NCBI RefSeq assembly: GCF_019218285.1
Contig: NZ_JAHUZG010000001.1
Span: forward strand, 744,001 to 808,000
Reading direction: 5' to 3'
Length of the DNA stretch: 64,000 nucleotides
DNA from: Antarctobacter sediminis
Lineage (GTDB): Bacteria > Pseudomonadota > Alphaproteobacteria > Rhodobacterales > Rhodobacteraceae
Shown here: positions 2,794 to 52,394 of the stretch, piece after piece
Layout of the letters: each line of letters begins with the position of its first letter
Position numbering within the stretch: position 1 is the first letter of the stretch
The notes under the pieces: generated by a model
What the model was told of the DNA's origin: nothing
The model's database searches: none
What the model saw: only the letters and a program-made list of their open reading frames with translations
Position numbers and translations under genes: made by a program

Positions 2794-4371
2794 ATGTCCA
2801 GATTTCTTTTTCAACTTACGCTTCTGATCGTCGTGACGGTCTTTCCGGTGCGCGATACCCAAGCCGCCGAATTCACAATCCTGCCGGTGTCACCTTTCGA
2901 ATCCAACTGCTGGCTGGAAGTGATGACCGGTACAATCGTGCCCGGCAGCTTTGTCCGCGAAGCCATCCCAAGATGCGAAACCGATACGTCCGGCCATAGC
3001 CCGAACTACGGCTCCCGCGTGGATACTTCGGCCATCGGACGCAGCGAGAGCTGGCAGTTCTGGGACAGCGAAAGTGACCGTCCCGCCTTGGGCCTTGACG
3101 GTGCATGGAGCTATCAGGAAATCCATGACGTGGCCGCGGTTCAGGCGCTGGCCAACGGGCGCGTGATCAGGATGGACGGCACGATCCAGCCCGGAGACGC
3201 CGACAGGTTCGAAAGCTTTCTGCGCGAAAACAACCTGCTGAATTGTCTCGATGACGAGTATTGTCCGCATCAAAACGTTCTGGCGTTGGACAGTCCGGGC
3301 GGCAGCCTTGGCGAAGCGCTCAAGATCGCGGACATGGTGCAGCGCTATGATTTTCCGGTGCTGATCCCCGCCGATGCGGTCTGTGCTTCGTCGTGCAGCT
3401 TTGTGTATTTCGCCGGTTACACAGAATACGAAAGCTTTTTCCATAATCGCCGGTTCATCCATGAAACCGGTCGCCTGATGGTTCACAGACCTCGCATTGA
3501 TCTGGCCGAGCGGGCGTTTTCCACCGGTGAGGTCCGGCAGATCGTCGAGGTTCTGGACGAGGTCAAGGAAGAGGCCATTCGCCAGTTCCTTCAGGCCCGC
3601 ATTCCCCGGCTGGTGCTGTTGCAGATGTATGAAACCGCATCTGAAGATCTGGCGACCATTCCGTTGGCTCAGATGACCGGATTTGCCACCGTGATCGGAT
3701 CAACCGCCTTGCAGGACACCCTGCCCGACCGCCATGGCATCCTGTCGTTCTGTGCCTTCCAGTATTACAATCACTCGGGTCGCATGCATCCCGATCTGCT
3801 CAAGAACCTCGAAGTACGCGACGAAAGCTTTGCCACGTGGATCGACAAGGAGGATTTCCTCTGCTTCGGGGCACGTTTGCCCGATAATGGATGGGTCTAC
3901 GATGCCTGTCACGACAACTTCGGCTATGCCTGCGCCTTGATGCAATACGCCGAAAACGAACTGCCGGCTGGCAGTTTCACCCCGGATGGCGAATTTCCGA
4001 CCTATGGCGCGCTTCTGGCAAGTTACCCGGGCCGCGGGCGGCACGACCTGATCCGCGCCGCCTTGTCGTGGAGCGGAGCGTTTGCGGATCACCTGCCGCG
4101 CTGGGTCAATGTCGCCACGGTTCCGCGACACTACTGCGGCGCGCTGGACATCGGTGCGCCGCAAAGCACTCGCCGCCTTCAGGCCGCGCTGAATGCCCGC
4201 GGCTATGACGCCGGTCCGGTCGACGGCATGATGGGCGGACGCACGGTTGCGGCACTGGCCGCCGCGGCCTCTGCCGCAGGTCAGCCACTGGGCGACACGA
4301 TCACCCAAGATGTCCTGCGCGTCATCGGCGTCGCCGAGACCGACATTGACGCCATGCGGTTGTGCCAATGA
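2794..4371 (+). CDS. Secreted ClpP-fold-like protein with C-terminal peptidoglycan-binding domain
   Basis: This 525-residue protein has a signal peptide (residues 1-24, ending DTQA/AEF). A central region (about 120-300) resembles the ClpP/SppA/crotonase superfamily. It has LALDSPGGSLGEALKIAD (SPGGS at 167-171), a CASSCSFVYFAG segment (197-208) whose Ser199 aligns with the ClpP nucleophile, and MVHRP with His231 where ClpP has its catalytic His. Residues 455-513 form a PG_binding_1-like repeat (RRLQAALNARGYDAGPVDG). The protein is probably periplasmic and could be a wall-associated serine protease, but the substrate is unknown. Two paralogues lie at 29115 and 50877. Several cysteine pairs, including the two flanking the candidate nucleophile, suggest disulfides. 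Confidence 0.75.
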   Translation: MSRFLFQLTLLIVVTVFPVRDTQAAEFTILPVSPFESNCWLEVMTGTIVPGSFVREAIPRCETDTSGHSPNYGSRVDTSAIGRSESWQFWDSESDRPALGLDGAWSYQEIHDVAAVQALANGRVIRMDGTIQPGDADRFESFLRENNLLNCLDDEYCPHQNVLALDSPGGSLGEALKIADMVQRYDFPVLIPADAVCASSCSFVYFAGYTEYESFFHNRRFIHETGRLMVHRPRIDLAERAFSTGEVRQIVEVLDEVKEEAIRQFLQARIPRLVLLQMYETASEDLATIPLAQMTGFATVIGSTALQDTLPDRHGILSFCAFQYYNHSGRMHPDLLKNLEVRDESFATWIDKEDFLCFGARLPDNGWVYDACHDNFGYACALMQYAENELPAGSFTPDGEFPTYGALLASYPGRGRHDLIRAALSWSGAFADHLPRWVNVATVPRHYCGALDIGAPQSTRRLQAALNARGYDAGPVDGMMGGRTVAALAAAASAAGQPLGDTITQDVLRVIGVAETDIDAMRLCQ

Positions 4372-4500
4372 GTGCAGAAACAGACCGCAAGCGGCGCAAG
4401 AGCAACGATTAATACGAAATCAGGCTGCCTGCGACGCGATCCGCTGGACAGGACCGCATGGCAGCTTTTACCGGTGGTTCAAACACCTCCGGAGACACGC

Positions 4501-4944
4501 ATGACCTCGATCCTCGTTCTAAACGGTCCCAATCTCAACCTTTTGGGCACCCGTCAGCCCGAGATCTATGGCCACACGACACTGGCTGATGTCGAGGAGA
4601 TGTGTGTCGCACATGGCAAGGCGCGCGGCGTTGCCGTCACCTGTGCGCAATCCAATCACGAAGGCGCGCTGGTGACCTTCATCCATGAGGCGCGCGGCGT
4701 GCACGACGGCATCATCCTCAATGCCGGCGCATATACCCACACTTCGATTGCGCTGATGGATGCCATCAAGGGCACCGAAATGCCAACCGTCGAACTGCAT
4801 CTGTCCAATGTTCATGCCCGCGAAGAGTTTCGCCACCGGTCCTACATTGCCCCCGCCGCCATCGGCGTCATAGCGGGTTTCGGCGCAAACGGGTATAAAT
4901 TGGCTATCGACGCCCTTCTGGGCCATCTGGAGACCCGGTCATGA
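4501..4944 (+). CDS. aroQ: Type II 3-dehydroquinate dehydratase
   Basis: This 147-residue protein has the standard length for the small dodecameric enzyme that converts 3-dehydroquinate to 3-dehydroshikimate in the shikimate pathway. It begins with the family signature LVLNGPNLNLLGTRQPEIYG, with catalytic Tyr23 and Arg18. LNAGAYTHTS holds Asn74, and ELHLSNVHAREEFR holds the catalytic His100 and substrate-binding residues. The ATG at 4501 is the conserved start; the longer open frame upstream has no family similarity. Its last four bases overlap the start of the downstream LuxR-type gene, so the two are translationally coupled. Confidence 0.95.
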   Translation: MTSILVLNGPNLNLLGTRQPEIYGHTTLADVEEMCVAHGKARGVAVTCAQSNHEGALVTFIHEARGVHDGIILNAGAYTHTSIALMDAIKGTEMPTVELHLSNVHAREEFRHRSYIAPAAIGVIAGFGANGYKLAIDALLGHLETRS

Positions 4945-5705
4945 CACCCGAACTGAGAGACTACCTGATCGAAGTGACCAATGCCGAAGAGATCGAACCG
5001 CTATGGGAAACCCATTGCGCACGGATGGACTCTTATGGCTTTGACCGGCTCATATATGGGTTCACGCGGTTCCTGACCGCCAACAGTTTTGGCGACCCGA
5101 ACGATCTGATCGTGCTGACCAACCACACGCCAGCCTATCGCAAGGGCTTTGTCGAGGATGGCCTGTACCGCCACGCGCCCATGGTTCGCTGGGCGCTGGA
5201 GAACGAAGGCCATTGTAGCTGGCGCGCCTTGGCCGAACAGATCACCAAGGGCACGCTGGATGACAAGGCGGCAAAAGTCGTTGCCTTCAACCTGCAACAC
5301 AAGGTGCACGCCGGGTATACGATCAGCTTTAAGTCGGTTTCGCACAGGGCCAAGGGCGCGATTTCGCTGACCACGCGACCTGAGATGAACCAGGACGAAG
5401 CCGACGCCGTCTGGGCGGAACACGGGCAGGACATCGTTCTGATGAACAACCTCGTGCATCTCAAGATCCTCACCCTGCCCTTGCCGCTGGCTGGTCAGAA
5501 TCTGACGCCGCGCCAGCGCGAAGCCTTGGAATGGGTCGGTGACGGCAAGACGATGCAGGACATTGCCCAGATCATGGGGCTGACGCAGGCCACCATCGAA
5601 AAGCACCTGCGGCTTGCGCGCGAGACCCTGAATGTTGAAACAACGGCGCAAGCCGTGGCAAAAGCCGCGTTTCACAACCAGATGTACATCCTTGAGGCGC
5701 AATAA
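4941..5705 (+). CDS. LuxR-family regulator with autoinducer-binding-like domain (solo)
   Basis: This 254-residue protein has an N-terminal autoinducer-binding-like domain (about 15-165) and a C-terminal LuxR helix-turn-helix (about 188-250), which includes LTPRQREALEWVGDGKT and IAQIMGLTQATIEKHL. No LuxI-type synthase is in the window. Aligned by eye to TraR, the signal-pocket positions are altered: Trp57 is Tyr66, Tyr61 is Phe70 and Asp70 is Ala79, while Pro71 (Pro80) and probably Trp85 (Trp94) are kept. The ATG overlaps the aroQ stop (ATGA). It may sense an unusual ligand or none. Confidence 0.85.
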   Translation: MTPELRDYLIEVTNAEEIEPLWETHCARMDSYGFDRLIYGFTRFLTANSFGDPNDLIVLTNHTPAYRKGFVEDGLYRHAPMVRWALENEGHCSWRALAEQITKGTLDDKAAKVVAFNLQHKVHAGYTISFKSVSHRAKGAISLTTRPEMNQDEADAVWAEHGQDIVLMNNLVHLKILTLPLPLAGQNLTPRQREALEWVGDGKTMQDIAQIMGLTQATIEKHLRLARETLNVETTAQAVAKAAFHNQMYILEAQ

Positions 5706-6063
5706 AGTTACGACCCAAGTTAATCTTAAGGGAACAATGGGTTAACGGCCAATGCTTGCGTGATTTCAGCGTGAATTTCGCTGTTTTACCCTTTGGTCAG
5801 GAAATCCGTACTTCCTTTACCGAGGGTAAATTGCGATTGTTCAAGCGTTCCGTGAGTGGTGGCTTTGGCCATGGAACGAAGGGGCTGCAACCCGCGTATT
5901 TCCGGGCCCTGCGGTTCTTCGCTGGTTCGGTGGTGGCAATTACCGCTGCTGCCGGCCAGCATCCTTTCGGGGTCCCTGGATCTCATCCCCAATGTCTCAC
6001 CGGGGGCCCCGAATCCACGATCCCCCAAGTCTGACACAATCGCACGCAGCATTTGCCCGGCGG
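5706..6063. other. Intergenic region, no confident gene
   Basis: About 360 bases lie between the LuxR-type stop and the tsf terminator. The first part is AT-richer (GTTAATCTTAAGG). Two short plus-strand frames are open across it but neither has a convincing ribosome-binding site or recognisable protein. I see no RNA gene or repeat. Confidence 0.4.
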
Positions 6064-6100
6064 AAAAAGAAAAGGCGCCGAACCCATGTCCGGCGCCTTT
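6064..6100 (-). terminator. Rho-independent terminator after tsf
   Basis: A perfect 9-bp stem (AAGGCGCCG with CGGCGCCTT, 6072-6099) is followed on the minus strand by a T-rich run (TTTTCTTTTTCC). It lies about 50 bases past the tsf stop. Confidence 0.85.
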
Positions 6101-6147
6101 AATAGCGTCAGGGGCAAGGCGCGCGCCCTGCCCCACAATCCGAAAGA

Positions 6148-7023
6148 TCAGCCCTGAGCGGCCTTCGCCACTTCGGCGGCGAAATCTTCTTCTTTCTTCT
6201 CGATGCCTTCACCGACCTGCATACGGACAAAGCCCACGATCTCGGCGCCTGCGTCCTTGGCGGCCTGCTCGACGGTCTTGTCGGTGTCCAGCGCGAACTG
6301 CTGGCCCAGCAGGGTCACTTCGGCGAGGAACTTCTTCATGCGGCCAACGATCATCTTTTCGATGACGGCGTCGGGCTTGCCGGATTCCTTGGCGATGTCG
6401 ATTTGAACCTGACGTTCTTTCTCGACGATGGCCGGATCCAGCTCGGCTTCGTTCAGTGCGGCGGGGCTCATCGCGGCGATGTGCATGCCGACCTGCTTGC
6501 CGAACTCTTCGTTGCCGCCCTTGAGCGCCACCAGAACACCGATCTGGCCAAGGCCGTCGGCAGCCGCGTTGTGCACATAGGCCGCAACGACGTCACCTTC
6601 GACCGACGCCATGCGGCGCAGCGACATGTTCTCGCCAATGGTGGCGATCTTGTCGGTGATGGCTTCCGAAACGGGCTTGCCGCCCATGTCGGCATTGGCC
6701 AGCGCTTCGACGTCGGACACGGTCAGGGCGACATTGGCAATGCCGGACACCATGGCCTGGAACTCGGCGTTCTTGGCAACAAAGTCGGTTTCCGAGTTCA
6801 CCTCGACGGCAACGCCTTTGCCACCGTCGACCTTGACGGCCACCAGGCCCTCTGCCGCGGTACGGCCGGATTTCTTGGCCGCCTTGGCCAGACCCTTGGT
6901 GCGCAGCCAGTCGATTGCGCCTTCCATGTCGCCGTCGGTCTCGACCAGCGCCTTCTTGGCATCCATCATGCCTGCGCCGGTCATCTCGCGCAGTTCTTTC
7001 ACCTGTTTTGCAGTGATCGCCAT
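6148..7023 (-). CDS. tsf: Translation elongation factor Ts
   Basis: This 291-residue EF-Ts is the nucleotide exchange factor that recycles EF-Tu-GDP. The N-terminal UBA-like domain carries [19 protein letters not shown], and SETDFVAKN matches the EF-Ts signature that contacts EF-Tu. The rest is the dimerisation and core region typical of the family. The ATG follows a GAGGAG ribosome-binding site. It lies 128 bp downstream of rpsB in the conserved rpsB-tsf order, with a large hairpin in the gap. Confidence 0.96.
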
Positions 7024-7059
7024 GGTTTGGCTCTCCTCATCGATTCTTTACAGGAGGTC

Positions 7060-7102
7060 GGGTGGCCCCGCGCCGGGGACGATCCCCGGGCTTCGGCCAC
7101 CC
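7060..7102 (-). promoter_or_regulatory. Hairpin in the rpsB-tsf gap
   Basis: GGGTGGCC at 7060-7067 pairs with GGCCACCC at 7095-7102, enclosing a second GC-rich stem (CCGGGG with CCCCGG). No T-run follows on the minus strand, so it looks like an RNA structural or processing element and not a full terminator. Confidence 0.5.
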
Positions 7103-7151
7103 TATGTCACGGGCACATGTCGCTTTTGCGACAGTCGCCCAGGGGCCTGTG

Positions 7152-7928
7152 TCAGCCCTCGGCACCTTCGCCAGCTTCGGCCAGCAATTCTTCGGCCGGA
7201 GCGTCTTCGAGCGCGCCCAGGTCGACGCCTGCGGCTTCCATCTGGCCGGTCATACCGTCCAGAGCTGCGCGGCTGACGAGGTCGCAATACAGCGCGATGG
7301 CGCGTGCCGCGTCGTCGTTGCCGGGGATGATGTAGTCAACGCCATCGGGCGAGCAGTTGGTGTCGACGATCGCCACAACCGGGATGCCCAGCTTGTTGGC
7401 TTCGGCCACGGCCAGCGCTTCTTTCTTGACGTCGATGACGAACAGCATGTCCGGCACACCGCCCATTTCACGGATACCACCCAGCGAAGCTTGCAGCTTC
7501 GTCTGGTCGCGTTCCATGTTCAGGCGCTCTTTCTTGGTCAGACCTTCGGCGCCGCCTTCCATCTTTTCGTCGATTTCGCGCAGGCGGTTGATCGACTGGG
7601 ACACGGTCTGCCAGTTGGTCAGAGTGCCGCCCAGCCAACGGTGGTTCATGTAGTACTGCGCGCATTTCTCGGCAGCTTCGGCGATCGGCTGAGCCGCCTG
7701 ACGCTTGGTGCCGACGAACAGCACGCGGCCGCCCTTGGCAACGCAGTCACGGATCGCGTTCAGCGCCGCGTCCAGCATCGGGACGGTCTGCGTCAGGTCC
7801 ATGATGTGGATGCCGTTGCGCGCACCGTAGATGAACTCGCCCATGCGGGGGTTCCAGCGCTGCGTCTGGTGGCCAAAGTGAACGCCAGCTTCCAGCAGCT
7901 GACGCATGGTGAACTCGGGAAGAGCCAT
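7152..7928 (-). CDS. rpsB: 30S ribosomal protein S2
   Basis: This 258-residue protein of the small ribosomal subunit begins [20 protein letters not shown], the canonical S2 start. It contains [19 protein letters not shown] and the [13 protein letters not shown] stretch. The tail is acidic, ending AEEGEGAEG-like. I placed the start at the ATG of MALPEF (7926-7928) because it follows AAAGGATAGAAGG; the upstream in-frame ATG adds 14 non-conserved residues. The roughly 190 bp before the start are GC-rich and gene-free and form the leader of the operon. The gene is followed by tsf. Confidence 0.96.
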
Positions 7929-8120
7929 GCCTTCTATCCTTTCCGGTTTCATGCCTCGGCGGGGGATCAAGGCGCTTGCCTCAACCGGTGGACCCTTGGG
8001 GATGTCTGTCCAATAGGCCCGCCCCCGCCTGCGGGGTTCATGGCGGTGCCTTTAGCGGGGTTTTCCCAAGGGCGCAAGCCCGGATCTGGCAGGAAAGTGG
8101 CGGCACGGTCCGCCCGTGGG

Positions 8121-8666
8121 TCAGGGTTGAACCTTTTCGGGCTTTTTCTGCCCTTCATCTGCTACGCTCAACCACGTTTTCACCCCGCGCAGGAATTCTC
8201 CAAGCTCGGCCATGCGGGCCCCCATTTCGGTCAGCTGCAAACTGTCGGGTGCGCGGTCCCCCAGTTCTTTGGCCAGCTTTTCGGCCTGCGCATTGATCCG
8301 GGCGATCTCTTTCTCGATGTCTTTGGTTTCCTGCAAAAGGCGCGCTTCGCGGTCCTCGCGCTTGGTCAGTTTGCGCATGTCCGCCATCAGACGTTTCAGC
8401 CGCAGACGATCTGACAGGGCCATGTAGATCAGCCATTGCGTCATCGCCGCGCCAAACCCGGTGACCTGAAATTTCCACCGGCGGCGTTTGCCCCACATGT
8501 CCATCAGGGCGTCCCGTTCCAATGTGCCGAATTCCACTTGTGAATAGCGCAGGCGCACGCTGGACCTGTTTTCATTGCCGATGCGCGCCAACGCCGCACC
8601 GGGCGCACATGCAAACCCAAGGAGGACAAACAGGCTGTGGCGGCGGGTCGGCATAAGGCTGGTCAT
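8121..8666 (-). CDS. Hypothetical secreted or membrane-anchored coiled-coil protein
   Basis: This is a 181-residue protein that I do not recognise. Residues about 10-28 are hydrophobic and end in an AALA-type site, so it probably carries a signal peptide. A second moderately hydrophobic stretch (VTGFGAAMTQWLIYMALSD) follows. Residues 88-165 are charged and heptad-rich (RLRLKRLMADMRKL through EKEIARINAQAEKLAKEL), consistent with a coiled coil. It stands alone between rpsB and the HupE/UreJ gene on the same strand. A role at the envelope is possible but not shown. Confidence 0.55.
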   Translation of the reverse strand: MTSLMPTRRHSLFVLLGFACAPGAALARIGNENRSSVRLRYSQVEFGTLERDALMDMWGKRRRWKFQVTGFGAAMTQWLIYMALSDRLRLKRLMADMRKLTKREDREARLLQETKDIEKEIARINAQAEKLAKELGDRAPDSLQLTEMGARMAELGEFLRGVKTWLSVADEGQKKPEKVQP

Positions 8667-8752
8667 GATCGGGGCCTTTCAAAGCGGTGGGCTATCATAA
8701 CATAATCCACCGCCCCGATCTGTCGCAAAAGGCGGGAAAACCCGCCCTGCCC

Positions 8753-10054
8753 TTACAGGAACACCCGTTCCACGAACCAATAGGCTCCGACACAGGCAAT
8801 CGCCAGCGACGCCGGCACGGCAACGAAGTGGCGATAGGCGCGCACGTCATCGACAAAGCTCGCCGACAACAGGCAGAGAATGCTCAACCCGGCCAAGGGC
8901 CAGAGGAACACAGGAGCCCCCGCGCCCATGGCTTCGGTGAAACCGGGACCGTTCAACAGATACCCCGCGGCCACAAAGCCCAGTGCCAGCACCCCATAGA
9001 CGACTTGCCCGGTGCGCAGATCGGTGCGCCCGCTGTCCACGCGCTGCGCGAGATAGACCAACAGGAAGGCAATCGCGATCACCGTCAGCTGGCCAAGCTC
9101 CACCCCGACGTTGAAACCGATCAGCGCCGGGATGAACTGCCCCGCAGGAAGACCGAACTCACCCAGAACCGAGGCAAAGCCCAACCCGTGCAACAGGCCA
9201 AAGACGAAAATCACCACCGGCCGCCACTTGTGCAGACCGTCCGAAACGATGTTTTCCACCGCGACATAGACGATGGAAGCCGCGATGATCGGCTCGACGA
9301 TGCTGCCGGGAATGTTGACATACCCCAGCGCGCCCAACGCCAGTGTGACCGTATGCGCCAGCGTAAAGGCCGAGATCTGCCACAGCAGCGGCCCAAGCCG
9401 AGTCGACAGAAAGAACAGACCCAGCACAAACAGAATGTGGTCCAGCCCCATGGGCAGGATGTGTTCGAACCCGACCGGAATGTAATAGGCAAAGGCACCG
9501 AACCCCGACATGGCATTGCCACCCGCGATTGCGATCGGGTCCGAGGTGCCGCCGGTCAGATACCCGGTGAACCCGTCCTCGACATCTGTCTGGCGCAGGA
9601 TCAGAGTGCCGTATTCCGACGGCCAGCTGACCGTCAGCGCCTCTGCCCCGGCCGGCAGCGGACCGGTAAGGAACAGGCGCGACTCGCGCGGCAGGCTTTC
9701 GTCCGGGACATCATCAACCTGAACCTCGGTCACCGTCAGAGAGACCCCCTGCCCGTCCGCCGCGATGCCAAGGCTGGACAGGACCCCGGCAAGGCCGGAC
9801 TGGATCTCGGCTTGCAGCGCCTCGGGGGACAAGGCGCGCAGGCTGTCGACACGATCCGCGCCGTCGGCCTCGTTGGTATCGTCCAGCCCCTCCAGATCGA
9901 TCCCGGCCAGAACCGGCTCCATACTAAGTCGCAAGACCAGCGATACGGCACCGTCCTTGGTGGTCAGATCCCCGATGGCGGGCCTGACCTCATGGGCCTG
10001 AGCGGTTGAAACGGATACCACAAGCGCCAGAAGCGCGGCAAAAAATCGGAACAT
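8753..10054 (-). CDS. HupE/UreJ-family membrane protein
   Basis: This 433-residue protein has a signal peptide (MFRFFAALLALVVSVSTAQA), an extracytoplasmic N-terminal domain of about 180 residues, and a C-terminal half with about seven membrane helices. The membrane part carries EHILPMGLDHILFVLGLF and the LLHGLGFASVLGEFG motif of the HupE/UreJ_2 family, which includes candidate nickel or cobalt carriers. Conserved histidines in these helices could bind metal. The start at 10052-10054 is chosen for the signal peptide. No urease or hydrogenase genes are nearby, so the substrate is unknown. The gene lies downstream of phoB but behind a strong terminator, so it is likely a separate unit. Confidence 0.75.
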   Translation of the reverse strand: MFRFFAALLALVVSVSTAQAHEVRPAIGDLTTKDGAVSLVLRLSMEPVLAGIDLEGLDDTNEADGADRVDSLRALSPEALQAEIQSGLAGVLSSLGIAADGQGVSLTVTEVQVDDVPDESLPRESRLFLTGPLPAGAEALTVSWPSEYGTLILRQTDVEDGFTGYLTGGTSDPIAIAGGNAMSGFGAFAYYIPVGFEHILPMGLDHILFVLGLFFLSTRLGPLLWQISAFTLAHTVTLALGALGYVNIPGSIVEPIIAASIVYVAVENIVSDGLHKWRPVVIFVFGLLHGLGFASVLGEFGLPAGQFIPALIGFNVGVELGQLTVIAIAFLLVYLAQRVDSGRTDLRTGQVVYGVLALGFVAAGYLLNGPGFTEAMGAGAPVFLWPLAGLSILCLLSASFVDDVRAYRHFVAVPASLAIACVGAYWFVERVFL

Positions 10055-10156
10055 GGCAGACCCTGTCGGTTTTCTATCGTTACACGCCAAGATGACGCAG
10101 CCCGAAACAAGATCAAGCATCAATCCCGCCGAGCCGCCCCCGAAACCGCCCGAAAA

Positions 10157-10189
10157 CGAAAACCGGCGGCCCCTGCAAGGGACCGCCGG
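10157..10189 (-). terminator. Rho-independent terminator after phoB
   Basis: CCGGCGG at 10163 pairs with CCGCCGG ending at 10189, extended by GTCCC/GGGGC, with a TTGC loop. On the minus strand it is followed by TTTTCGTTTT. It marks the end of the pst-phoU-phoB operon. Confidence 0.8.
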
Positions 10190-10222
10190 CACTCATCCTT
10201 TGATGCTGTGATCCCGAAAGGG

Positions 10223-10912
10223 TCAGCCCAACGCATAGCCTGCGCCGCGCACGGTGCGCAGCGGATCGCCGCCGCCATGCTGGCACAGAGCCTTGCGCAG
10301 ACGGCCGATATGCACATCGACCGTACGCGTATCGACATAGATGTCACGGCCCCAGACCCGGTCGAGCAATTGCTCACGCGACCAGACCCGTCCCGGCTTT
10401 TCCATGAAGGTCGTCAGCAGGCGGAACTCGGTCGGACCCAGCTTCAGCGCCTGGCCGTCGCGGGTGACACGATGGGTTTCGCTGTCCAGCACGATGTCCT
10501 CGTACTCCAGCCGCAGCCCCGCCGCCGCGGGACGGGCACGACGCAACTGCGCCCGCACCCGTGCCATCAGTTCAATCACCGAATAGGGTTTGACCACATA
10601 GTCATCCGCTCCGGTTTCCAGCCCACGCACCCGGTCCACTTCTTCGGACCGGGCAGAAAGCATGATGATCGGCACGTTGCGCGTATCCGACCGGGTCTTG
10701 ATCTGGCGGCAGACCTCGATCCCCGAGACATTGGGCAGCATCCAGTCCAGAACGATGATGTCCGGGCTTTCCTCCTCGATGAGGACAAGCGCCTCTTCAC
10801 CGTTTTCGGCCCGCGTCACGCGGAACCCTTCGGCTTCGAGGTTGTAGGTCAGGACTTCGCGCTGTGCCGCTTCGTCCTCGACCACCAGAACCGTTGGCTG
10901 ATCTGCTGGCAT
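10223..10912 (-). CDS. phoB: Phosphate regulon response regulator PhoB
   Basis: This 229-residue OmpR-family response regulator has a receiver domain (2-118) with the acidic pocket VVEDE, phospho-acceptor Asp56 in IIVLDWMLP, and the KPYS lysine loop. A winged-helix DNA-binding domain (about 130-229) has LGPTEFRLLTTFMEKPGRVWSREQLL in short pieces and ends VRGAGYALG. Phosphorylated by PhoR, it binds Pho boxes and activates phosphate-starvation genes. It is the last gene of pstSCAB-phoU-phoB, starting 4 bases after phoU. The Pho box before pstS implies autoregulation. Confidence 0.95.
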   Translation of the reverse strand: MPADQPTVLVVEDEAAQREVLTYNLEAEGFRVTRAENGEEALVLIEEESPDIIVLDWMLPNVSGIEVCRQIKTRSDTRNVPIIMLSARSEEVDRVRGLETGADDYVVKPYSVIELMARVRAQLRRARPAAAGLRLEYEDIVLDSETHRVTRDGQALKLGPTEFRLLTTFMEKPGRVWSREQLLDRVWGRDIYVDTRTVDVHIGRLRKALCQHGGGDPLRTVRGAGYALG

Positions 10913-10916
10913 GGTC

Positions 10917-11668: not shown

Positions 11669-11672
<4 letters not shown>
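10917..11672 (-). CDS. phoU: Phosphate signalling protein PhoU
   Basis: This 251-residue PhoU consists of two three-helix-bundle repeats. [17 protein letters not shown] and [17 protein letters not shown] are the two metal-binding E/D-rich signatures. PhoU links the PstSCAB transporter to PhoR and suppresses Pho signalling when phosphate is plentiful. Two ATGs lie in tandem at the start (11670-11672 and 11667-11669). The first overlaps the pstB stop (ATGA), giving translational coupling; either could be used. Any longer upstream frame would run inside pstB and is not real. Confidence 0.94.
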
Positions 11673-12472
<800 letters not shown>

Positions 12473-29114: not shown

Positions 29115-30116
29115 ATGCGCAGGCATGTTCTGTGGGCTGTGACAGCCTGTTTCCCGGTGTTTCCATCCATCACCCAGGCGGCCGAACTGGACATCCTCCC
29201 TCCGCCCGACATTCCGATCGAATACGAAGTGCAGGCGCCCGATCCCGCGCGCGCTTGCAGCTTTCGCCTGACCGGTCCATTGGCGACCGGTGATGGTGAC
29301 CGCATCGTCGCCCGTCTGCAACAAACGCCGCGCGGCGTTCCGACCCCGGTGCTTTGCCTCGACAGTCCCGGAGGGTCGCTGGTCGAGGCGCTGGAACTCG
29401 CCCGGTTCCTGCGCAGCGCAAAGATCGGCACCCGGCTGGAACCCGGCACCCGATGCGAAAGCGCCTGCGCGCTGGTCTTTATGGCGGGCAGTTTCATCCC
29501 GCATGAATCCGGCCCCCGAAAGTGGCGGGTGATGCACCCGACGGCCCGGTTGGGGTTCCATTCGCCATCGCTGAACGTGCCCGAGGGCAACTACCGCGCC
29601 GATACGGTCAAGGCGTCCTACGAATTGGCCATGCGCAGCCTTGCGATGACCCTGACACAACTGGTCCAGAACCGGGATTTCGACGATGGCGAGCATCTGA
29701 AACCCTCATTGATGGCTGCCATGCTGCAAACCCCGTCGGACAGCATGTACCACATCCAGACGGTGGATCAGGCCGGGCGCTGGGGGATCACCGTCGGCCC
29801 GCTGACCGGTCAGGACACAACGTTCGACGCGCCCGCATTGCGGCGTGCCTGCGCCAACAAGGTGGCCTGGGAGGCAGACAAAAGCGCGCTGGAGGCGGCC
29901 CATTACGACCGGTGGCATGTCGCCTTTGGCAAGGATCAGTACGGCCCGAAAGTGGATGTCATCTACGACGAATTCTGGGGCGACGCCTGCACTTGGGATG
30001 TCCCGGAAAGCGCCGCAGCCACCGGCAGGATCGCCCTGCCAGACCTTGGTCAAGGCCTCCTCGACCTCAGCAAGCTGGTGGATCCGTCCACCCGGCTCGT
30101 CGATCTGCCGCACTAG
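29115..30116 (+). CDS. Secreted ClpP-fold-like protein, no peptidoglycan-binding tail
   Basis: This 333-residue protein has a signal peptide (cut near TQA/AELD). LCLDSPGGSLVEALELARFL (SPGGS at 84-88) and CESACALVFMAG (114-125) place candidate nucleophile Ser116 between two cysteines, and LGFHSP places His149 where ClpP has its catalytic His. So the Ser and His of a ClpP-type triad are both available. It is shorter than its paralogues at 2794 and 50877 and lacks their C-terminal peptidoglycan-binding repeat. Its C-terminal 130 residues include a Trp-rich segment (YDRWHVAFGKDQYG) I do not recognise. It is probably periplasmic; the substrate is unknown. Confidence 0.72.
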   Translation: MRRHVLWAVTACFPVFPSITQAAELDILPPPDIPIEYEVQAPDPARACSFRLTGPLATGDGDRIVARLQQTPRGVPTPVLCLDSPGGSLVEALELARFLRSAKIGTRLEPGTRCESACALVFMAGSFIPHESGPRKWRVMHPTARLGFHSPSLNVPEGNYRADTVKASYELAMRSLAMTLTQLVQNRDFDDGEHLKPSLMAAMLQTPSDSMYHIQTVDQAGRWGITVGPLTGQDTTFDAPALRRACANKVAWEADKSALEAAHYDRWHVAFGKDQYGPKVDVIYDEFWGDACTWDVPESAAATGRIALPDLGQGLLDLSKLVDPSTRLVDLPH

Positions 30117-39540: not shown

Positions 39541-39543
39541 CCC

Positions 39544-43078: not shown

Positions 43079-43093
43079 GCCAGTGGCCCGGGA

Positions 43094-43714: not shown

Positions 43715-43795
43715 GGGGATTGGCTATAGGCCGCAGGGGGCGACCTTGCAAGCGTCCCCCTTGCAGCTTTGGGCCGCGCGGTCTAGCTGACTTGC

Positions 43796-45316: not shown

Positions 45317-45388
45317 CCGGGGCAGATTTGCCAAGACATTTCACCTCTGCCCGCCAACCGGTGTATTCAGGGCGCAAGGGAGAACTCC

Positions 45389-46033
45389 ATGATCCAACTC
45401 GACATCTTTTCCGATCCGATCTGCCCTTGGTGCTATATCGGCAAGGCCTATCTTGACCGCGCGCTGGAGGCGAACCCGGACCATCCGTTCCAGATCCGCT
45501 GGCTGCCGTTCATGCTGAACCCGGACATGCCCGCCGCTGGCATGGATCGGCGCGAATACCTTGAAACCAAGTTCGGCGGCAAGGACGGCGCGGTCCGCGC
45601 CTATCTGCCGGTCGAGGAACACGCCAAAAAGGCGGGTTTGTCGATGAATCTCGACAAGATCACCAAGACCCCCAACACCATCGACGCCCATCGTTTGATC
45701 CACTGGGCCGGGATCGAAGGGCGGCAGACGCCCATCGTATCCAGCCTGTTCCGGGCCTATTTCATCGAAGGCCGTGACATTGGCGATGCCGAGGTTCTGG
45801 CCGACGTCGCCGACGGTTGCGGTCTGGATGCCAGCCTTGTCCTGCGTCTGCTGGCCTCGCAAGAGGACCGGCGCGAGATCGTCGAACGCGACGCCGCGGC
45901 GCGTGGCATGGGCGTGAACTCTGTCCCCACATTCATCGTGGCGGGCAAACATGCGGTTCCCGGGGCGCAGCCGCCCGAATTGTGGAGCCGGGTGATCGAG
46001 GAACTGCGCACCGGGGCCGACCCCGAGGCATGA
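45389..46033 (+). CDS. DsbA-family oxidoreductase (FrnE-like)
   Basis: This 214-residue thioredoxin-fold protein starts with IFSDPICPWCYIGKAYLDRAL, holding a CPWC redox motif at about residues 12-15. It has the helical insertion of the DsbA/FrnE family and a cis-Pro loop in GVNSVPTFIVAGK. There is no signal peptide, so it is cytoplasmic. Family members are disulfide oxidoreductases or isomerases. It overlaps the downstream potassium channel gene by four bases. Confidence 0.88.
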   Translation: MIQLDIFSDPICPWCYIGKAYLDRALEANPDHPFQIRWLPFMLNPDMPAAGMDRREYLETKFGGKDGAVRAYLPVEEHAKKAGLSMNLDKITKTPNTIDAHRLIHWAGIEGRQTPIVSSLFRAYFIEGRDIGDAEVLADVADGCGLDASLVLRLLASQEDRREIVERDAAARGMGVNSVPTFIVAGKHAVPGAQPPELWSRVIEELRTGADPEA

Positions 46034-46389
46034 CCCGGCTGCGCCTTCTCACGCTGCTATTGACGCTGGTCCTGATCATCTTTGGCGGGACCGTCTTCTT
46101 TCGCCACGTTGAAGGCTGGTCCTGGCTCGATTCCTATTTCTTCACAGTCGTGACCCTGTCGACCGTGGGCTATGGCGAACTGGTGCCGCAGACGGCGATT
46201 GGCCGCATTGGCACCACGGTTTTCATCCTGCTGGGACTGGGCATTTTTGCGGTGGCCGTCCAACAATTCGGCGTCTTTGCCATGCGCAAGCGTGAAGAGC
46301 ATACCGAATGGTTGATCGCGCGGCTGGGCCACGAGGACAAGACCGTACCCCCGGCCAATGAAGATGACCCGCCGGAAGGCAAAAGCTGA
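46030..46389 (+). CDS. Small two-helix potassium-channel-type protein
   Basis: This 119-residue protein has two hydrophobic helices (about 5-24 and 58-80) flanking a pore loop with the selectivity filter TVGYG (about residues 45-49) in FFTVVTLSTVGYGEL. This is the Ion_trans_2/KcsA architecture. The C-terminal 35 residues are charged, with no RCK or cyclic-nucleotide domain. It is translationally coupled to the DsbA-like gene (ATGA), whose redox role may be unrelated. The gating signal is unknown. Confidence 0.85.
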   Translation: MTRLRLLTLLLTLVLIIFGGTVFFRHVEGWSWLDSYFFTVVTLSTVGYGELVPQTAIGRIGTTVFILLGLGIFAVAVQQFGVFAMRKREEHTEWLIARLGHEDKTVPPANEDDPPEGKS

Positions 46390-46449
46390 TCTGTTCCTCG
46401 CCTAAAACGCGTGTTAAGGCCGGGCTTTGACATTACGCGAGGTCCCCCG

Positions 46450-47697
46450 ATGCAGGCGCCCCAGGAAACCCCGGTTCACAGCGCGCCCACGGCGGAAATG
46501 CCCGGTCGGGTGGAATTGATCGCCCTCATGGCGATGCTGGCGGCGATCATCGCCTTTTCCATCGACGCCATGTTACCCGCCCTGCCCGCCATGGCGGCCG
46601 AGATGAGCCCCGACGCGCCGAACCGCGTGCAACTGGTGGTGACGATCTTTGTTTTGGGCATGGGCATCGGCACGCTGTTCACCGGCCCCCTGTCCGATTT
46701 CTTTGGCCGGAAACCGGTGGTTCTGGCCGGGACTGCACTGTATATCGCCGCCGCCGCACTGGCCGCGCAGGCCGAAAGCCTTGGCATGTTGTTGTTTGCG
46801 CGCCTGTTGCAGGGCCTTGGCGCCGCCGGTCCTCGCGTTGTGTCCATGGCGATTATCCGGGACTTGTTCGCCGGGCGGCAAATGGCGCAGATCATGTCTT
46901 TTGTCATGATGGTCTTTACGCTGGCCCCTGCCATCGCGCCGACCATCGGCGCGGCGATGGTTTCCTTCGCGGGATGGCATTCGATCTTTTGGGCCTTTGT
47001 CTTCTTTGCCGGCGTGCTCAGCCTTTGGTTGAGCGTTCGCCTGCCGGAAACCCTGCCACGCGGGGCGCGTCTTCCGTTCCGGACAGCCGACCTCTGGCAG
47101 GCGACGAAGGAAACCATGTCATACCCCGTGGTTCGCCTGTCGATCGCGGTTCAGAGCTGTGTCTTCGGCATGTTGTTCGCAACGATTTCCAGCGTGCAGC
47201 AGATCTATGAAATCAGCTTCGACAAGGGCGACTCCTTTCCCCTGTGGTTTGGTGTCGTCGCGATCCTGTCCGCCTCGGGCAGCGTTCTGAATGCCATGCT
47301 GGTGGTGCGCATTGGCATGCGCAGGCTGGTGTCGATCATGCTGGCGGTTCAGATCGTCCTCAGCGGCGGGCTCTTGTTGGTGCAACTGGCCGGTGTCAGC
47401 GGCGACGCGTTGTTCGTGATCTTTTTCATTTGGCAGTTCGGCGCCTTCTTTCAGGCGGGCATGACCATTGGCAATCTCAACGCCATGGCGATGGAACCGG
47501 TAGGCCATATCGCGGGCATGGCGGCCTCTGTCATTGGCTTCATCTCGACCGTGGCCGCCGTGGTGCTGGCCGTGCCCGTTGGGCTGATGTTCGATGGCAC
47601 CGCACTGCCCTTGGCCATCGGCGTATTGGTCTTTGCCATCGCCGGTTTGCTGTTGATGCAGGCCATGCGCCGGGCCGAGTCCCGCATGGCACCGTAG
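46450..47697 (+). CDS. MFS multidrug efflux transporter, Bcr/CflA type
   Basis: This 415-residue transporter with twelve helices belongs to the drug:H+ antiporter family. It has DAMLPALPAMAAEM in the first helix region and GPLSDFFGRKPVVLAG as the loop 2-3 signature. LLQGLGAAGPRVVSMAIIRDLF is typical of Bcr/CflA proteins. The ATG at 46450 follows a purine-rich stretch (GCGAGGTC) and avoids an improbable N-terminal tail. Substrate unknown. Confidence 0.85.
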   Translation: MQAPQETPVHSAPTAEMPGRVELIALMAMLAAIIAFSIDAMLPALPAMAAEMSPDAPNRVQLVVTIFVLGMGIGTLFTGPLSDFFGRKPVVLAGTALYIAAAALAAQAESLGMLLFARLLQGLGAAGPRVVSMAIIRDLFAGRQMAQIMSFVMMVFTLAPAIAPTIGAAMVSFAGWHSIFWAFVFFAGVLSLWLSVRLPETLPRGARLPFRTADLWQATKETMSYPVVRLSIAVQSCVFGMLFATISSVQQIYEISFDKGDSFPLWFGVVAILSASGSVLNAMLVVRIGMRRLVSIMLAVQIVLSGGLLLVQLAGVSGDALFVIFFIWQFGAFFQAGMTIGNLNAMAMEPVGHIAGMAASVIGFISTVAAVVLAVPVGLMFDGTALPLAIGVLVFAIAGLLLMQAMRRAESRMAP

Positions 47698-47706
47698 CCG
47701 GATCGG

Positions 47707-49251
47707 TCAAACCTCTGCCATGCCGCGCATCAGGTCCTCTTCGGTGAATGTAAAGGCCTCGATATCGCAGGATAGTTTCTTGGAGGCGATGGTCATCCGG
47801 CGAGAGGTCGAAGCCAGTTGTCGCGACCGTTCAGACACGCGGCGGGTTTCGCCATCTGCCTGTTGAATCTGGTTGTGCAACCCGGTCATCGCCCCGGCCT
47901 GATCTGCGTTGCGGGTCGCAATGGCGTCGGTCATCTCGCTGGTTCGGGCGATGCGCTCCATGATCTCGTCAAGGCTGTTGCCCACTGCGTCCACCAGTTC
48001 AGCGCCGGTGGTGACCTGTTCAGAGCTTCGGGTGATAAGCGACCGGATGCCCGCCGCGGCTTCGGACGTGCTTTGGGCAAGGTGGCGCACCTCTGCCGCC
48101 ACTACGGCGAACCCCTTGCCCGAGGGACCGGCCCGCGCGGCCTCGACCCCCGCATTCAGGGCCAGCAGGTTGGTCTGAAAGGCCACATCATCAATCAGAT
48201 CCACGATCTGCGAAATCTCGCGTGAGCTGTCCTCGATCCCGCGCATCGCGGTGATGGCCTGTGTCGTGACGGTCCCGATGCGTTCGGCGCTTGCGCGTGC
48301 TTGTCCCGCCGCAGAGGCCGCCTGTTTCGCCTCTTGTACGGTCGCCTCAAAGGCCTGAAGCAACTGGGTTGCGGCCGTTGTCATCTCGGCCAGACGGTCG
48401 ACCTGATTGCCCGATTGTCCCGAAAGCGCGATCATGTCCTGCGCCAACCCCTGCGCATCGGTGGTGAAACTGCCAGCCAATGCATTCGCACTGAGAAAGG
48501 AATCCCGCAGGGTTTCGACGGTGGTGTTGAAATCCTCGCGCATGATCTCATAGGCCTCGGGGAATGGCTGATCGATCCGGCAGGTCATGTCGCGCCCGCT
48601 AAGCCGGGTCAGCGCGACCCGCACCTGCGCGATCACTTCTTGCGCGACAATGTTGGACGCCTCGGCCTCGGCCTGCGCATCGGCGGCCATGCGACGTTCG
48701 GTTTCCAACCGGGCGTTGGTCTGGGCAAGGCGTTCGCGTGCCTTTTTCCGTTGGATCATCGACGTGGCCAGCACCCCGCCTTCCAACAGCACGACCGCAA
48801 GATGCAAAAGCCCGCGCAGCAGGATCGACCCGCCTTCTCCCACGGGCCAGACCAGCGCGGGCCAAACCGTCCCGACCCCGAACAGATGGACCGCCGTCAG
48901 CCCGCAGGCCCACGCAAGGACAGGAACGCTCCCCAGTGTCGAGACAACCGCCAACACGGCGAAAAAGATCAGATGCGTATCGGTTTGCCATGGATGCCCG
49001 GAAAATTCCGCAGTGACCACAACCGCTTGCAGGATCAGCATGGTTGCAATGCCGTAACCGCCCAGCACATGCCCGCCCCGTGTGGACAAGGCCGCGAGTA
49101 TTGCCGCCACCGGCAACACATGAATCAACATCCCCGGCACCTGCCCCGATGACAGGATCACCAACCAGGCCAGCGGCACGACCAAAACGCTGACCACGAC
49201 CGCGATCACCCGGCCATCCATGCGCCAAAGCTGGGAAAACAGGGTGTTCAT
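47707..49251 (-). CDS. Methyl-accepting chemotaxis protein with polytopic membrane N-terminus
   Basis: This 514-residue chemoreceptor has five or six membrane helices in residues 15-165 with very short loops, so there is no periplasmic ligand domain, followed by a coiled coil ([19 protein letters not shown]) and the signalling tip [18 protein letters not shown] with [14 protein letters not shown]. It would signal to CheA/CheW. No other che genes are in the window. The input is probably a membrane or cytoplasmic property such as redox state. Confidence 0.87.
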
Positions 49252-49486
49252 TGTCGTCTACTCCACAGGGGGATGGGGGTCTTGGGCCGCATGTTTCCTG
49301 TAGCCAGCCCTACGCCGCGCCCCTTACCTGCGGATTAACGGCCCATTTTTAATGCCTAAAATCCATTCTCTCCGCGTCGCTTGGTCCCAGCGCCCCTATT
49401 ATCGTATACATTTGCATACCGCATTTCCGCACTGCCGAAAAACCGCTATGAAGGAGCCGAGTCAGACAAGGCCGAAGGGGCGCATC

Positions 49487-50701
49487 ATGACGAAGATCAA
49501 GGTCGACAACCCGATCGTCGAGATGGACGGGGACGAAATGACCCGCATCATGTGGGACTTCATCAAGCAAAAGCTGATCCTGCCGTATCTCGACATCGAT
49601 CTGCTGTATTATGATCTGGGCATCGAGGAACGGGACCGGACCGAGGACCAGATCACGATCGACGCCGCCGAAAAGACCAAGGAGGTCGGCGTCGCCGTCA
49701 AATGCGCCACGATCACCCCGGACGAGGCGCGGGTCGAGGAATTTGGCCTGAAAAAGATGTGGCGCAGCCCCAATGGCACCATCCGCAACATCCTTGGCGG
49801 AGTCGTCTTTCGCCAGCCGATCATCTGCCGCAACGTGCCGCGCCTGGTCCCCGGTTGGACATCACCCATCGTTGTCGGACGCCATGCCTTTGGCGATCAG
49901 TATAAGGCCACGGATTTCACCTTTCCCGGCCCCGGCAAGCTGACGATGAAATTCGAAGGCGAAGATGGCACCGTGATTGAACGCGAGGTCTATGACGCGC
50001 CGTCAGCGGGTGTCTATCAGGCGATGTACAACCTCGATGCCTCGATCATCGATTTTGCCCGTGCCTCTTTGAACTACGGACTGAACCTTGGCTGGCCGGT
50101 CTACCTGTCGACCAAGAACACGATCCTCAAGGCCTATGACGGCCGTTTCAAGGATCTGTTCCAACAGGTCTTCGAGGAAGAGTTCGAGGAAAAATTCAAG
50201 GAAAAGGGCATCTGGTACGAACACCGGCTGATCGACGACATGGTGGCCTGCGCCATGAAGTGGAACGGCAAATTCGTCTGGGCTTGCAAGAACTACGACG
50301 GCGACGTTCAGTCCGACACGGTGGCACAGGGCTTTGGCTCGCTTGGTCTGATGACGTCGCAACTGATGACGCCAGACGGCAAGATCGTCGAGGCCGAAGC
50401 CGCCCATGGCACCGTGACCCGCCATTACCGCCAGCACCAGAAGGGCGAGTCGACCTCGACCAACTCGATCGCGTCGATCTATGCTTGGACCGGCGGGCTG
50501 AAGCACCGCGCCAAGCTGGATGACAATGCGCGTCTGCGTGAATTTGCGGAAACCCTGGAGCGGGTGATCGTGGAAACGGTGGAATCGGGCCATATGACCA
50601 AGGATCTTGCCTTGCTGGTCGGCCCGGATCAGGGATGGCTGACGACCATGGGCTTTCTAGAAAAGATCGACGAGAATCTGAACAAGGCCCTCGCAGGCTA
50701 A
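49487..50701 (+). CDS. icd: NADP-dependent isocitrate dehydrogenase (eukaryote-like type)
   Basis: This 404-residue enzyme oxidatively decarboxylates isocitrate to 2-oxoglutarate in the TCA cycle. It is the dimeric eukaryotic-type (subfamily II) enzyme common in alphaproteobacteria: [19 protein letters not shown] at the start, [28 protein letters not shown]-type substrate loop, [20 protein letters not shown], and [12 protein letters not shown] near the coenzyme site. The ATG at 49487 follows GAAGGGG. The longer open frame upstream has no family similarity. Confidence 0.95.
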
Positions 50702-50876
50702 ATGCCCTCACGGCGGGGCGCGCGGGCAGATCCCGCGCCCCTGCCCCTCTGACCGGCGACAAAAGGGTTGCATCGCTACCGCACCCCGGCCCCGGACGCC
50801 CCGGCGCGGCTTGGAAAACCTTTGCGACAGGCGCTATGTCTTGGGGTGCTGCCACGCGACAGGCCCGGAGATCCCT

Positions 50877-52394
50877 ATGAAAGCTGCTCGTCTTCCCCGT
50901 TCCCTCCTGCCCGCGCTTCTTGCCTGCGCCTCACTTGCGCCGCTGGCGTCCGAGGCAGGTGAGATCGTTTCGACCCCGGGCACGCATTTCGATTGCGCCG
51001 CCACGCTGACCGGACCGATCGAACCCGGCGATCTGGCCAAGATTGCCGCGCTGGACACGCGCAGCTTTGCCGGGGGCGACCGGCCCTTGTGCCTGAACAG
51101 CCCCGGCGGAAGCTTTGTCGAGGCTCTGAAGATCGCCGATTACCTGAATGAACGCGGTGTGCCCACGGCGGTGGACGATGGCGCTGAATGTTACCAATCC
51201 TGCGCGCTTGTCCTTTTGGGTGGCAGCAGCCTGACCCACAGCCAAGGCACGGTGCCCAACAAGCGGATGCACCTGAACGCCAAACTGGCCTTTGGCAGCC
51301 CCAGTCTCGCCTTGGACGATCAGAGCTATACACCCGAACAGGTGGCCGCGGTCTATGGGTCGGCCTTGCAGGCAGCCAGCGAACTGACCGCACGGCTGGA
51401 TGATTTCGACATGACAGCCGATTTCGCCGCGCAGGTTCTTGCGCTGACAGACAGCGACCTTCTGTTTGTCGACCGCGTGGATCAGGCCCGCGCGCTTGGC
51501 CTGAAGCTGGAAGGATTCGAAGCGCCAAGCAGCCTTGGTGACGAGATGGTCACCCGCGCCTGTATCGCGGAAAAAACCGCCTTCGATCCCGATGTCTCGG
51601 AACCCGGGCAATCGGTCTATGACCACCGGGTGCTGCGCGAACAGGGCGCAACCGCCCATCGCAAAGCCACCTACGTGGTCGAGGCCATCATCGACGGCGT
51701 GCCCTCATGGATCGGCTGTCAGGTCGAGTTGAACACCGGCGCGGGCGATACCTCGGCTGCGCTTCGGATGCGGATCAGCCCGGATTGGACTGCGGGCGGG
51801 AACCCGTCGCTTTTTGCGGTTCACAAAGCCCTGTTGCCGTCCGACTGGATCGACGTGCCTTTCCGCGATTTCTGGAAATTCATCCCCGAAAACCAGACAC
51901 TGGCCGAAGCCCGCAAGATGACCGCCCCGGATGCCAGTTCGTCGATTATCGTGGCCCCCGTGCGGGACCTGCCCGCAACCACACGCGGCACCGAGGACGT
52001 GCTGGCGCTTCTGTTCGACGACCGCAAGGAGATCCAGAACCGTCTGACGCTGCTGGGCTTTGACACCAATGGAGCGGACGGCATTTTTGGCCCCGGGACA
52101 CGCAACGCGCTGCGCGACTGGCAACGCAGCAACGGGTTTCAGCCCACCGGCTTCCTTGATGCCGCGCAGCGTGACGCGCTCTTCCTGCAAAGCGAATCGC
52201 AATACCTTGTTTTTGCAGAAGAAGAACGCCAGAGGGATTTGGAGGACCAGCAGCTGCGCAACGCGCCTGCGCCTGTCTTCAATCCGCCGCCCGCCGCGAA
52301 CACACCCGCGCCCGAACCGCAGGGCCAGCGCGTGCGGGTCTGCCAGCGCACCATCTTTGGCGAATTGGTCAACTGCCGGATTGAATTCCGCTGA
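50877..52394 (+). CDS. Secreted ClpP-fold-like protein with degenerate active site and peptidoglycan-binding domain
   Basis: This 505-residue protein is the third paralogue of the family at 2794 and 29115. It has a signal peptide (residues 1-27, ending SEA/GEI) and LCLNSPGGSFVEALKIADYL (SPGGS 75-79). Where the paralogues have Cys-x-Ser-x-Cys it reads CYQSC (105-109), so Gln107 replaces the candidate nucleophile, and LAFGSP places Gly140 where they have His. A PG_binding_1 repeat lies at 374-436 (IQNRLTLLGFDTNGADGIFG), then a Pro-rich linker and a tail with two cysteines. It is probably a non-catalytic wall-binding protein. The ATG follows CGGAG. Confidence 0.72.
   Translation: MKAARLPRSLLPALLACASLAPLASEAGEIVSTPGTHFDCAATLTGPIEPGDLAKIAALDTRSFAGGDRPLCLNSPGGSFVEALKIADYLNERGVPTAVDDGAECYQSCALVLLGGSSLTHSQGTVPNKRMHLNAKLAFGSPSLALDDQSYTPEQVAAVYGSALQAASELTARLDDFDMTADFAAQVLALTDSDLLFVDRVDQARALGLKLEGFEAPSSLGDEMVTRACIAEKTAFDPDVSEPGQSVYDHRVLREQGATAHRKATYVVEAIIDGVPSWIGCQVELNTGAGDTSAALRMRISPDWTAGGNPSLFAVHKALLPSDWIDVPFRDFWKFIPENQTLAEARKMTAPDASSSIIVAPVRDLPATTRGTEDVLALLFDDRKEIQNRLTLLGFDTNGADGIFGPGTRNALRDWQRSNGFQPTGFLDAAQRDALFLQSESQYLVFAEEERQRDLEDQQLRNAPAPVFNPPPAANTPAPEPQGQRVRVCQRTIFGELVNCRIEFR

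What the first reader, a model, noticed from the sequence alone, without database searches (positions are those of the whole stretch)
2794..52394. Three dispersed ClpP-fold-like secreted paralogues, two fused to a peptidoglycan-binding domain
Genes at 2794, 29115 and 50877 encode secreted proteins that share a signal peptide, an SPGGS loop, a Cys-x2-x-Cys segment followed by a hydrophobic strand and GG or AG, and a downstream conserved block. The first and third also end in a PG_binding_1 repeat. This combination of a ClpP/SppA-like core with a wall-binding module, in three copies within 50 kb and outside any obvious operon, is not a pattern I recognise as described. It suggests a paralogous family acting in the periplasm or on the cell wall, with copy-specific roles.
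Basis: partly seen in the sequence, partly recalled or inferred. Interest (0 to 1): 0.7.

Follow-up and report, generated by a model that had tools for sequence, protein, structure and literature searches.

The report
Exported ClpP-like protein family, many copies
Three genes in this marine bacterium belong to a large, little-studied family of exported proteins built like the ClpP protease; most keep its active site, but one that carries a cell-wall-binding part has lost it and is still kept in all six genomes of its genus that were examined.

Summary
The three genes share one exported ClpP-fold family with 19 profile matches in this genome; three within 48 kb is near what random scatter gives (P 0.12-0.20). 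The 50 PDB hits listed for models of copies 2 and 3 are all ClpP; profile alignment puts a family Ser and His on ClpP's. The Ser sits in a Cys-x-Ser-x-Cys box. Pfam hardly sees the core (0 of 54 members; 1 of 87 as CLP_protease). The copies differ. Copy 1 is divergent, its wall-binding domain marginal. Copy 2 has an intact dyad. Copy 3 (50877-52394), with a clear PG_binding_1 domain, lacks both catalytic residues, yet its orthologue lies beside icd in 5 of 5 other genus genomes, His replaced by Gly in 6 of 6, under purifying selection. Best reading: exported, disulfide-stabilised ClpP-like serine hydrolases, some wall-targeted, including a conserved wall-bound pseudoenzyme. Peptidase activity is inferred. 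Exported ClpP-superfamily proteases with wall-binding domains have a precedent (S41), but kinship to it is weak.

The parts
2794..4371 (+). Copy 1 (P1), 525 aa exported ClpP-fold protein, Ser-His dyad intact, divergent lineage
3238..3573 (+). P1 stretch matching Pfam CLP_protease (30.7 bits, cut-off 20.2)
3382..3396 (+). P1 Cys-x-Ser-x-Cys box (CASSC, Ser199); partner His231 at 3484-3486
4168..4263 (+). P1 marginal PG_binding_1 (22.8 bits, cut-off 23)
29115..30116 (+). Copy 2 (P2), 333 aa, short form: signal-peptide-like start, ClpP-fold core, small C-terminal domain
29454..29468 (+). P2 Cys-x-Ser-x-Cys box (C114, S116, C118); partner H149 at 29559-29561
50877..52394 (+). Copy 3 (P3), 505 aa, ClpP-fold pseudoenzyme with wall-binding domain
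51189..51203 (+). P3 degenerate box CYQSC (Gln107 at the nucleophile position); Gly140 at the His position, 51294-51296
52017..52181 (+). P3 PG_binding_1 domain (E 1.4e-14)

Best explanation
The three genes belong to a family of exported (periplasmic or envelope) proteins whose core is a ClpP-type fold. Most members keep a Ser-His pair at the positions of ClpP's nucleophile and base, and probably act as ATP-independent serine peptidases or other acyl-hydrolases in the envelope. The nucleophile lies between two nearly invariant cysteines (Cys-x-Ser-x-Cys), and the long subfamily keeps four more cysteines; these most likely form disulfides that hold the nucleophile elbow and neighbouring strands outside the reducing cytoplasm. 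Variable C-terminal modules (SH3_3, PG_binding_1) tether part of the family to peptidoglycan. Copy 3 is a dead member kept for binding: most likely a wall-anchored scaffold, decoy or inactive partner of active paralogues. Shown by computation: kinship, fold of copies 2 and 3, residue pattern, domain content, conservation of copy 3. Inferred: export, proteolysis, disulfides, role of copy 3.
For: Fold: P2 model pLDDT 87.8, pTM 0.88; the 50 PDB hits listed (of 1528 at E up to 10) are all ClpP, best E 3.7e-8, TM by target length 0.59-0.69. P3 core likewise, best E 2e-7. Profile: hhalign of 16 paralogues to own ClpP prob 83.7, with S116 and H149 opposite ClpP Ser and His; hmmsearch of PDB sequences, best E 9e-4, 59 of the 60 shown ClpP. 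Residues in 87 rows from six genus genomes: C114 85, S116 78, C118 86, H149 80; Ser and His together 76. C48 and C81 occur together in 61 rows, one without the other in 1 row cut short. Six Cys invariant in 54 of 54 rows of A4 (most of those rows were retrieved with patterns that can include the Cys box). SH3_3 in 19 and PG_binding_1 in 12 of 87. P3: His to Gly in 6 of 6 orthologues, nucleophile position Q,N,N,N,N,S; 67-78% identity in 5 of 5 other genomes; icd beside it in 5 of 5, nrdJ in 4 of 5; dN/dS about 0.09 in two close pairs.
Against: No activity is shown for any member. The third triad residue is not conserved: at P2 209 D is 19 of 87; at P2 210 D or E is 60 of 87. Three genus members have Gly for the nucleophile with His kept. 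No signal-peptide or disulfide predictor was run; a strict regular expression found a signal-like start in 45 of 87 rows, a looser hydropathy test in 84 of 87, both on ORFs taken from the earliest start codon. Model coordinates could not be read, so dyad geometry and Cys distances are untested. P3's model is weak outside the core. The core-against-rest contrast for P3 holds against two of three dyad-bearing groups compared, not the third. nrdJ was not seen beside P3's orthologue in L131.
Confidence: 0.62

Rival explanations
1. The proteins are non-proteolytic ClpP/crotonase-fold hydrolases: the Ser-His pair cleaves esters, thioesters or modified wall or polysaccharide groups rather than peptides.
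For: The acid residue of the triad is not conserved; the superfamily is chemically diverse (recalled); SH3_3 and PG_binding_1 point to the wall.
Against: Listed structure hits are ClpP; the only crotonase-type match was phmmer of P2 at E 1.4-1.5, outside the core; Ser and His align with ClpP's.
Confidence: 0.22
2. The family is mainly a binding scaffold: the dyad is a relic and members act as exported interaction proteins, P3 being one of several inactive ones.
For: Of 85 genus rows with both columns filled, 9 lack Ser or His; presence is patchy and genera are interleaved on the tree.
Against: Ser and His are both kept in 76 of those 85, and in 125 of 127 rows with both columns filled in a wider set, which is biased because retrieval patterns could include the Ser.
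Confidence: 0.1
3. P3 is a pseudogene or recent accident and has no function.
For: Both catalytic residues are lost.
Against: Six of six genus genomes keep an open orthologue; icd lies beside it in the five others; dN/dS about 0.09 in close pairs.
Confidence: 0.03

Closest known systems
ClpP (peptidase family S14)
   Same: Fold; SPGG loop; Ser and His positions; listed structure hits
   Different: Export-like N-terminus, Cys-x-Ser-x-Cys box where own ClpP has AASMG, extra C-terminal domains, acid residue not fixed; no partner ATPase is expected outside the cytoplasm (inference)
S41 C-terminal processing proteases (CtpA/CtpB, Prc)
   Same: Exported ClpP-superfamily serine proteases (recalled), some with a PG-binding domain: NCBIfam lmo1851_S41 matches P3 in its PG_binding part (E 0.012)
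   Different: Core kinship is minimal: hhalign prob 3.5 with own S41 protein, 26 columns around the Gly-Gly loop. That protein carries PDZ domains; no PDZ match among 87 family members. S41 uses Ser-Lys (recalled)
SppA / signal peptide peptidase (S49)
   Same: Envelope location (recalled), ClpP-like superfamily, SPGG loop aligns
   Different: hhalign prob 21.7; SppA uses a Ser-Lys dyad (recalled), here Ser-His
ClpR, non-catalytic subunits of chloroplast Clp (PMC6508832; title and start of abstract seen)
   Same: A ClpP-fold paralogue without catalytic residues beside active ones, as P3
   Different: ClpR sits in an ATPase-fed core complex; for P3 no assembly is known, and it has a wall-binding domain
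COG3904 'predicted periplasmic protein' (label and relation recalled, not tested)
   Same: Recalled as periplasmic and ClpP-related
   Different: No COG library was on hand; one paper in the library holds the term, as a table entry for a hypothetical protein

Membership tests
ClpP fold (ClpP/crotonase superfamily) | ClpP-type fold | tested here: met
   P2 and P3 models against PDB; P1 not modelled, but over the Pfam CLP_protease cut-off
ClpP peptidase S14 | Catalytic Ser and His | tested here: met
   hhalign; 76 of 87 genus rows keep both. Met by P1 and P2, not by P3
ClpP peptidase S14 | Catalytic Asp | tested here: inconclusive
   No invariant acid in the expected region; geometry not readable
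ClpP peptidase S14 | Pfam CLP_protease above cut-off | tested here: not met
   P1 passes, P2 and P3 do not. At E 1e-3: 0 of 54 rows, most of them cut to about 320 aa, 1 of 87 whole members. A genome scan put two own copies over the cut-off
ClpP peptidase S14 | Cytoplasmic barrel with ClpX/ClpA | not testable with these tools
   N-termini look exported; assembly not tested
SppA (S49) | Sequence kinship and Ser-Lys dyad | tested here: not met
   hhalign prob 21.7, 58 columns around SPGG; conserved partner is His
S41 C-terminal processing protease | S41 core and PDZ domain | tested here: not met
   hhalign prob 3.5; no S41 or PDZ match among 87 members at E 1e-3
PG_binding_1 wall-binding proteins | PG_binding_1 domain above cut-off | tested here: met
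   P3 54.5 bits; P1 22.8, just under the cut-off of 23; P2 none. Binding itself not tested
Pseudoenzyme (P3) | Catalytic residues absent, gene conserved | tested here: met

The most novel reading that the evidence does not exclude
The copies form mixed ClpP-like assemblies in the periplasm without an ATPase, and copy 3 is a ClpR-like inactive subunit that anchors or gates active paralogues on the peptidoglycan: an extracytoplasmic, wall-tethered counterpart of the ClpP/ClpR core, with a disulfide-framed nucleophile.
Probability: 0.12. Interest if true: 0.85.

Novelty: new variant of a known kind. Interest (0 to 1): 0.5.

Why it matters
ClpP is known as a cytoplasmic, ATPase-fed protease. Here an export-signalled branch of the fold reaches 19 profile matches in one genome, in part carries wall-binding modules, has a distinctive nucleophile box and is almost invisible to Pfam. 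Copy 3 gives a natural contrast: a dead member with a wall-binding domain, conserved across a genus beside live paralogues. That makes it testable whether ClpP-fold pseudoenzymes act or regulate proteolysis at the cell wall.

Tried and rejected
Local cluster: rejected, chance of three starts within 48.1 kb is 0.12-0.20. Recent expansion within one lineage: rejected as the sole cause; on a 55-row tree the 15 own rows need 14 label changes, 9 forced by well-supported branches. SppA and S41 kinship: rejected. Defence system: no PADLOC match for the three. Phage origin: P1 has weak PHROGs matches to unknown, head-maturation, protease and endolysin families (best E 1.3e-6), P2 to an unknown and a protease family (best 2.9e-4), P3 mainly to endolysins; 4 relatives in viral contigs, not followed up. 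Phmmer of P2 against the PDB gave nothing below E 1. Literature: searches (15 of 30 listed; 6 of 21 listed) gave no description of the family in the listings seen; open-licence papers only. [quoted passage not shown] The viral structure library was not searched.

Full report
OBSERVATION. The third is best started at the ATG at 50877, which fits its orthologues. By phmmer the three match one another at E 1.9e-28 to 9.9e-9 in a set of 466 ORFs. All have SPGGS, a C-x3-C box and a hydrophobic N-terminus. PG_binding_1 is clear in copy 3 and just under the Pfam cut-off in copy 1.

HOW MANY COPIES. The window's genome (5.12 Mb, 21 contigs) holds 16 copies by single-protein searches and 19 by a profile of those 16. 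Simulation with 16 or 19 random places gives three starts within 48.1 kb in 12% or 20% of trials, so the grouping in the window needs no explanation. The five other genomes of the genus have 12-16 places that match copy 2 alone, a lower bound. The window's own species was not identified.

DISTRIBUTION. In 295 genomes of the same family, one per genus, 157 have at least one match at E 1e-5: five have 10 or 11, one has 6, the other 151 have 1-3. At most 11 candidates per genome were scored there, so high counts are lower bounds. Of 101 genomes drawn at order level 62 match, and one besides our own has 10 (the 82 listed are all of the same family). Of 190 drawn at class level 24 match, 21 of them from other families, with at most 4 copies. 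On a tree of 55 cores from nine groups that I chose, our 15 rows are interleaved with other genera: 14 label changes, 9 forced by well-supported branches, 12-15 over bootstraps. Some groups do cluster there (Natronohydrobacter, Roseibium), the nine labels together need 31 changes against 36.4 in shuffles, and several branches are long, so single placements are unsure. The family looks like a shared pool shaped by old duplication, loss and possibly transfer. One member sits on an Antarctobacter plasmid beside an IS6 transposase.

COPY 1. Its best blastp matches among all rows fetched are 42% (L067, Rhodobacteraceae bacterium Alg231_04) and 39% (L073, an uncultured Rhodobacteraceae); the best rows of its own genus are at 26-37% with lower scores (the output was cut at 2500 characters). 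In the genus-only tree it groups with two rows of G002 and G003, on a long branch. Transfer or loss in the other species could both explain this.

FOLD AND ACTIVE SITE. Copy 2 was modelled with 54 rows: pLDDT 87.8, pTM 0.88. The 50 PDB matches listed, of 1528 at E up to 10, are all ClpP, best E 3.7e-8. Copy 3, with 34 rows, has a confident core and a poor middle (mean pLDDT 71.7); its 50 listed matches, of 1284, are ClpP too, best E 2e-7. Copy 1 was not modelled; it passes Pfam CLP_protease. hhalign of the family profile places family Ser116 and His149 on the Ser and His of our own ClpP (prob 83.7). With our own SppA only 58 columns around SPGG align (prob 21.7), with our own S41 protease 26 columns (prob 3.5). 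In 87 rows from six genus genomes Cys114 is kept in 85, Ser116 in 78, Cys118 in 86, His149 in 80, Ser and His together in 76. Two of the 87 rows are pieces of what looks like one interrupted gene (L219). In a wider set of 141 aligned rows, 125 of the 127 with both columns filled keep Ser and His, but many were retrieved with patterns that can include the Ser, so I rest on the genus set. The third triad residue is not fixed. The Cys pair stays in the members that lost Ser, and C48 and C81 come and go together (61 both, 1 alone, 25 neither or gapped): this fits structural disulfides, which I infer but did not observe.

C-TERMINAL MODULES. Of 87 genus members 19 have SH3_3 and 12 PG_binding_1 at E 1e-3. 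Pfam recognises the core in 1 of these 87, and in 0 of 54 more diverse rows, most of them cut to about 320 aa. Of 13 plasmid records with a match, 10 call the gene hypothetical protein, the rest show no annotation there.

COPY 3, A CONSERVED PSEUDOENZYME. The nucleophile position is Gln and the His position Gly. An orthologue exists in 5 of 5 other genus genomes at 67-78% identity. All six have Gly for His; the nucleophile position reads Q, N, N, N, N, S, which suggests that His was lost first and Ser drifted afterwards (inference). The six form one supported clade. icd lies beside the gene in 5 of 5 fetched loci and nrdJ in 4 of 5; flanks were 1.5 kb. In two close pairs dN/dS is about 0.09 (0.038/0.437 and 0.035/0.405), much as in a dyad-bearing pair (0.039/0.507). 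In P3 the core is less conserved than the part after it (0.64-0.76 against 0.70-0.80). In dyad-bearing groups I compared the core with the whole protein: 0.86-0.87 against 0.74-0.75, and 0.71-0.86 against 0.60-0.76, but 0.78-0.80 against 0.82 in a third group, which shows no such contrast. Selection on copy 3 thus fits binding rather than catalysis, with that reservation. One member outside the genus (L019) has also lost both residues, and three genus members have Gly for Ser with His kept.

MECHANISM. Most likely: exported by Sec, oxidised in the periplasm, dyad-bearing members cleaving peptides or other acyl groups near the wall, some tethered by SH3_3 or PG_binding_1, copy 3 a wall-bound inactive relative that binds substrates or partners. 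Inactive ClpP-fold subunits have a precedent in chloroplast ClpR (PMC6508832, title and start of abstract seen), but assembly is untested here. Exported ClpP-superfamily proteases with wall-binding domains have a precedent in S41 (partly recalled).

NOVELTY. The fold is known. An exported, Cys-boxed, partly wall-targeted branch with a genus-wide pseudoenzyme was not found described in the searches made, whose listings I saw only in part. A COG label for part of the family may exist (COG3904, recalled). I rate it a new variant of a known kind.

Noticed in passing
window 4941-5705 (+): LuxR-type regulator (Autoind_bind plus GerE) just downstream of the dehydroquinase gene (ORF 4372-4944) that follows copy 1; whether a cognate synthase is near was not examined.
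   Followed up: no
window 52503-52991 (-): Small EF-hand protein convergent with copy 3, between it and the B12-dependent ribonucleotide reductase gene.
   Followed up: no
L151 5893-6939 (plasmid pSMS3-3 of Antarctobacter heliothermus): A relative of copy 2 (42.5% identity) lies on a plasmid next to an IS6 transposase, with Hsp70-family and AAA ATPase genes beyond.
   Followed up: partly
L184 2532-3956, L196, L217: Three family members in genus genomes have Gly for the nucleophile Ser but keep His: further candidate pseudoenzymes, two of them sister rows.
   Followed up: partly
L219 2424-2891 and 2666-3223 (G005): Two overlapping pieces in different frames that look like one interrupted family gene.
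   Followed up: no
   Followed up: no
L038 6304-7761 and 7695-9260; also L081, L092, L113: Tandem or clustered family members recur; in the own genome the two ORFs as listed overlap.
   Followed up: no
L042 1264-2223 (-): Another ClpP-related protein (CLP_protease 92.6 bits) beside what looks like a phage portal gene (by eye): probably a prophage head-maturation protease, distinct from this family.
   Followed up: no
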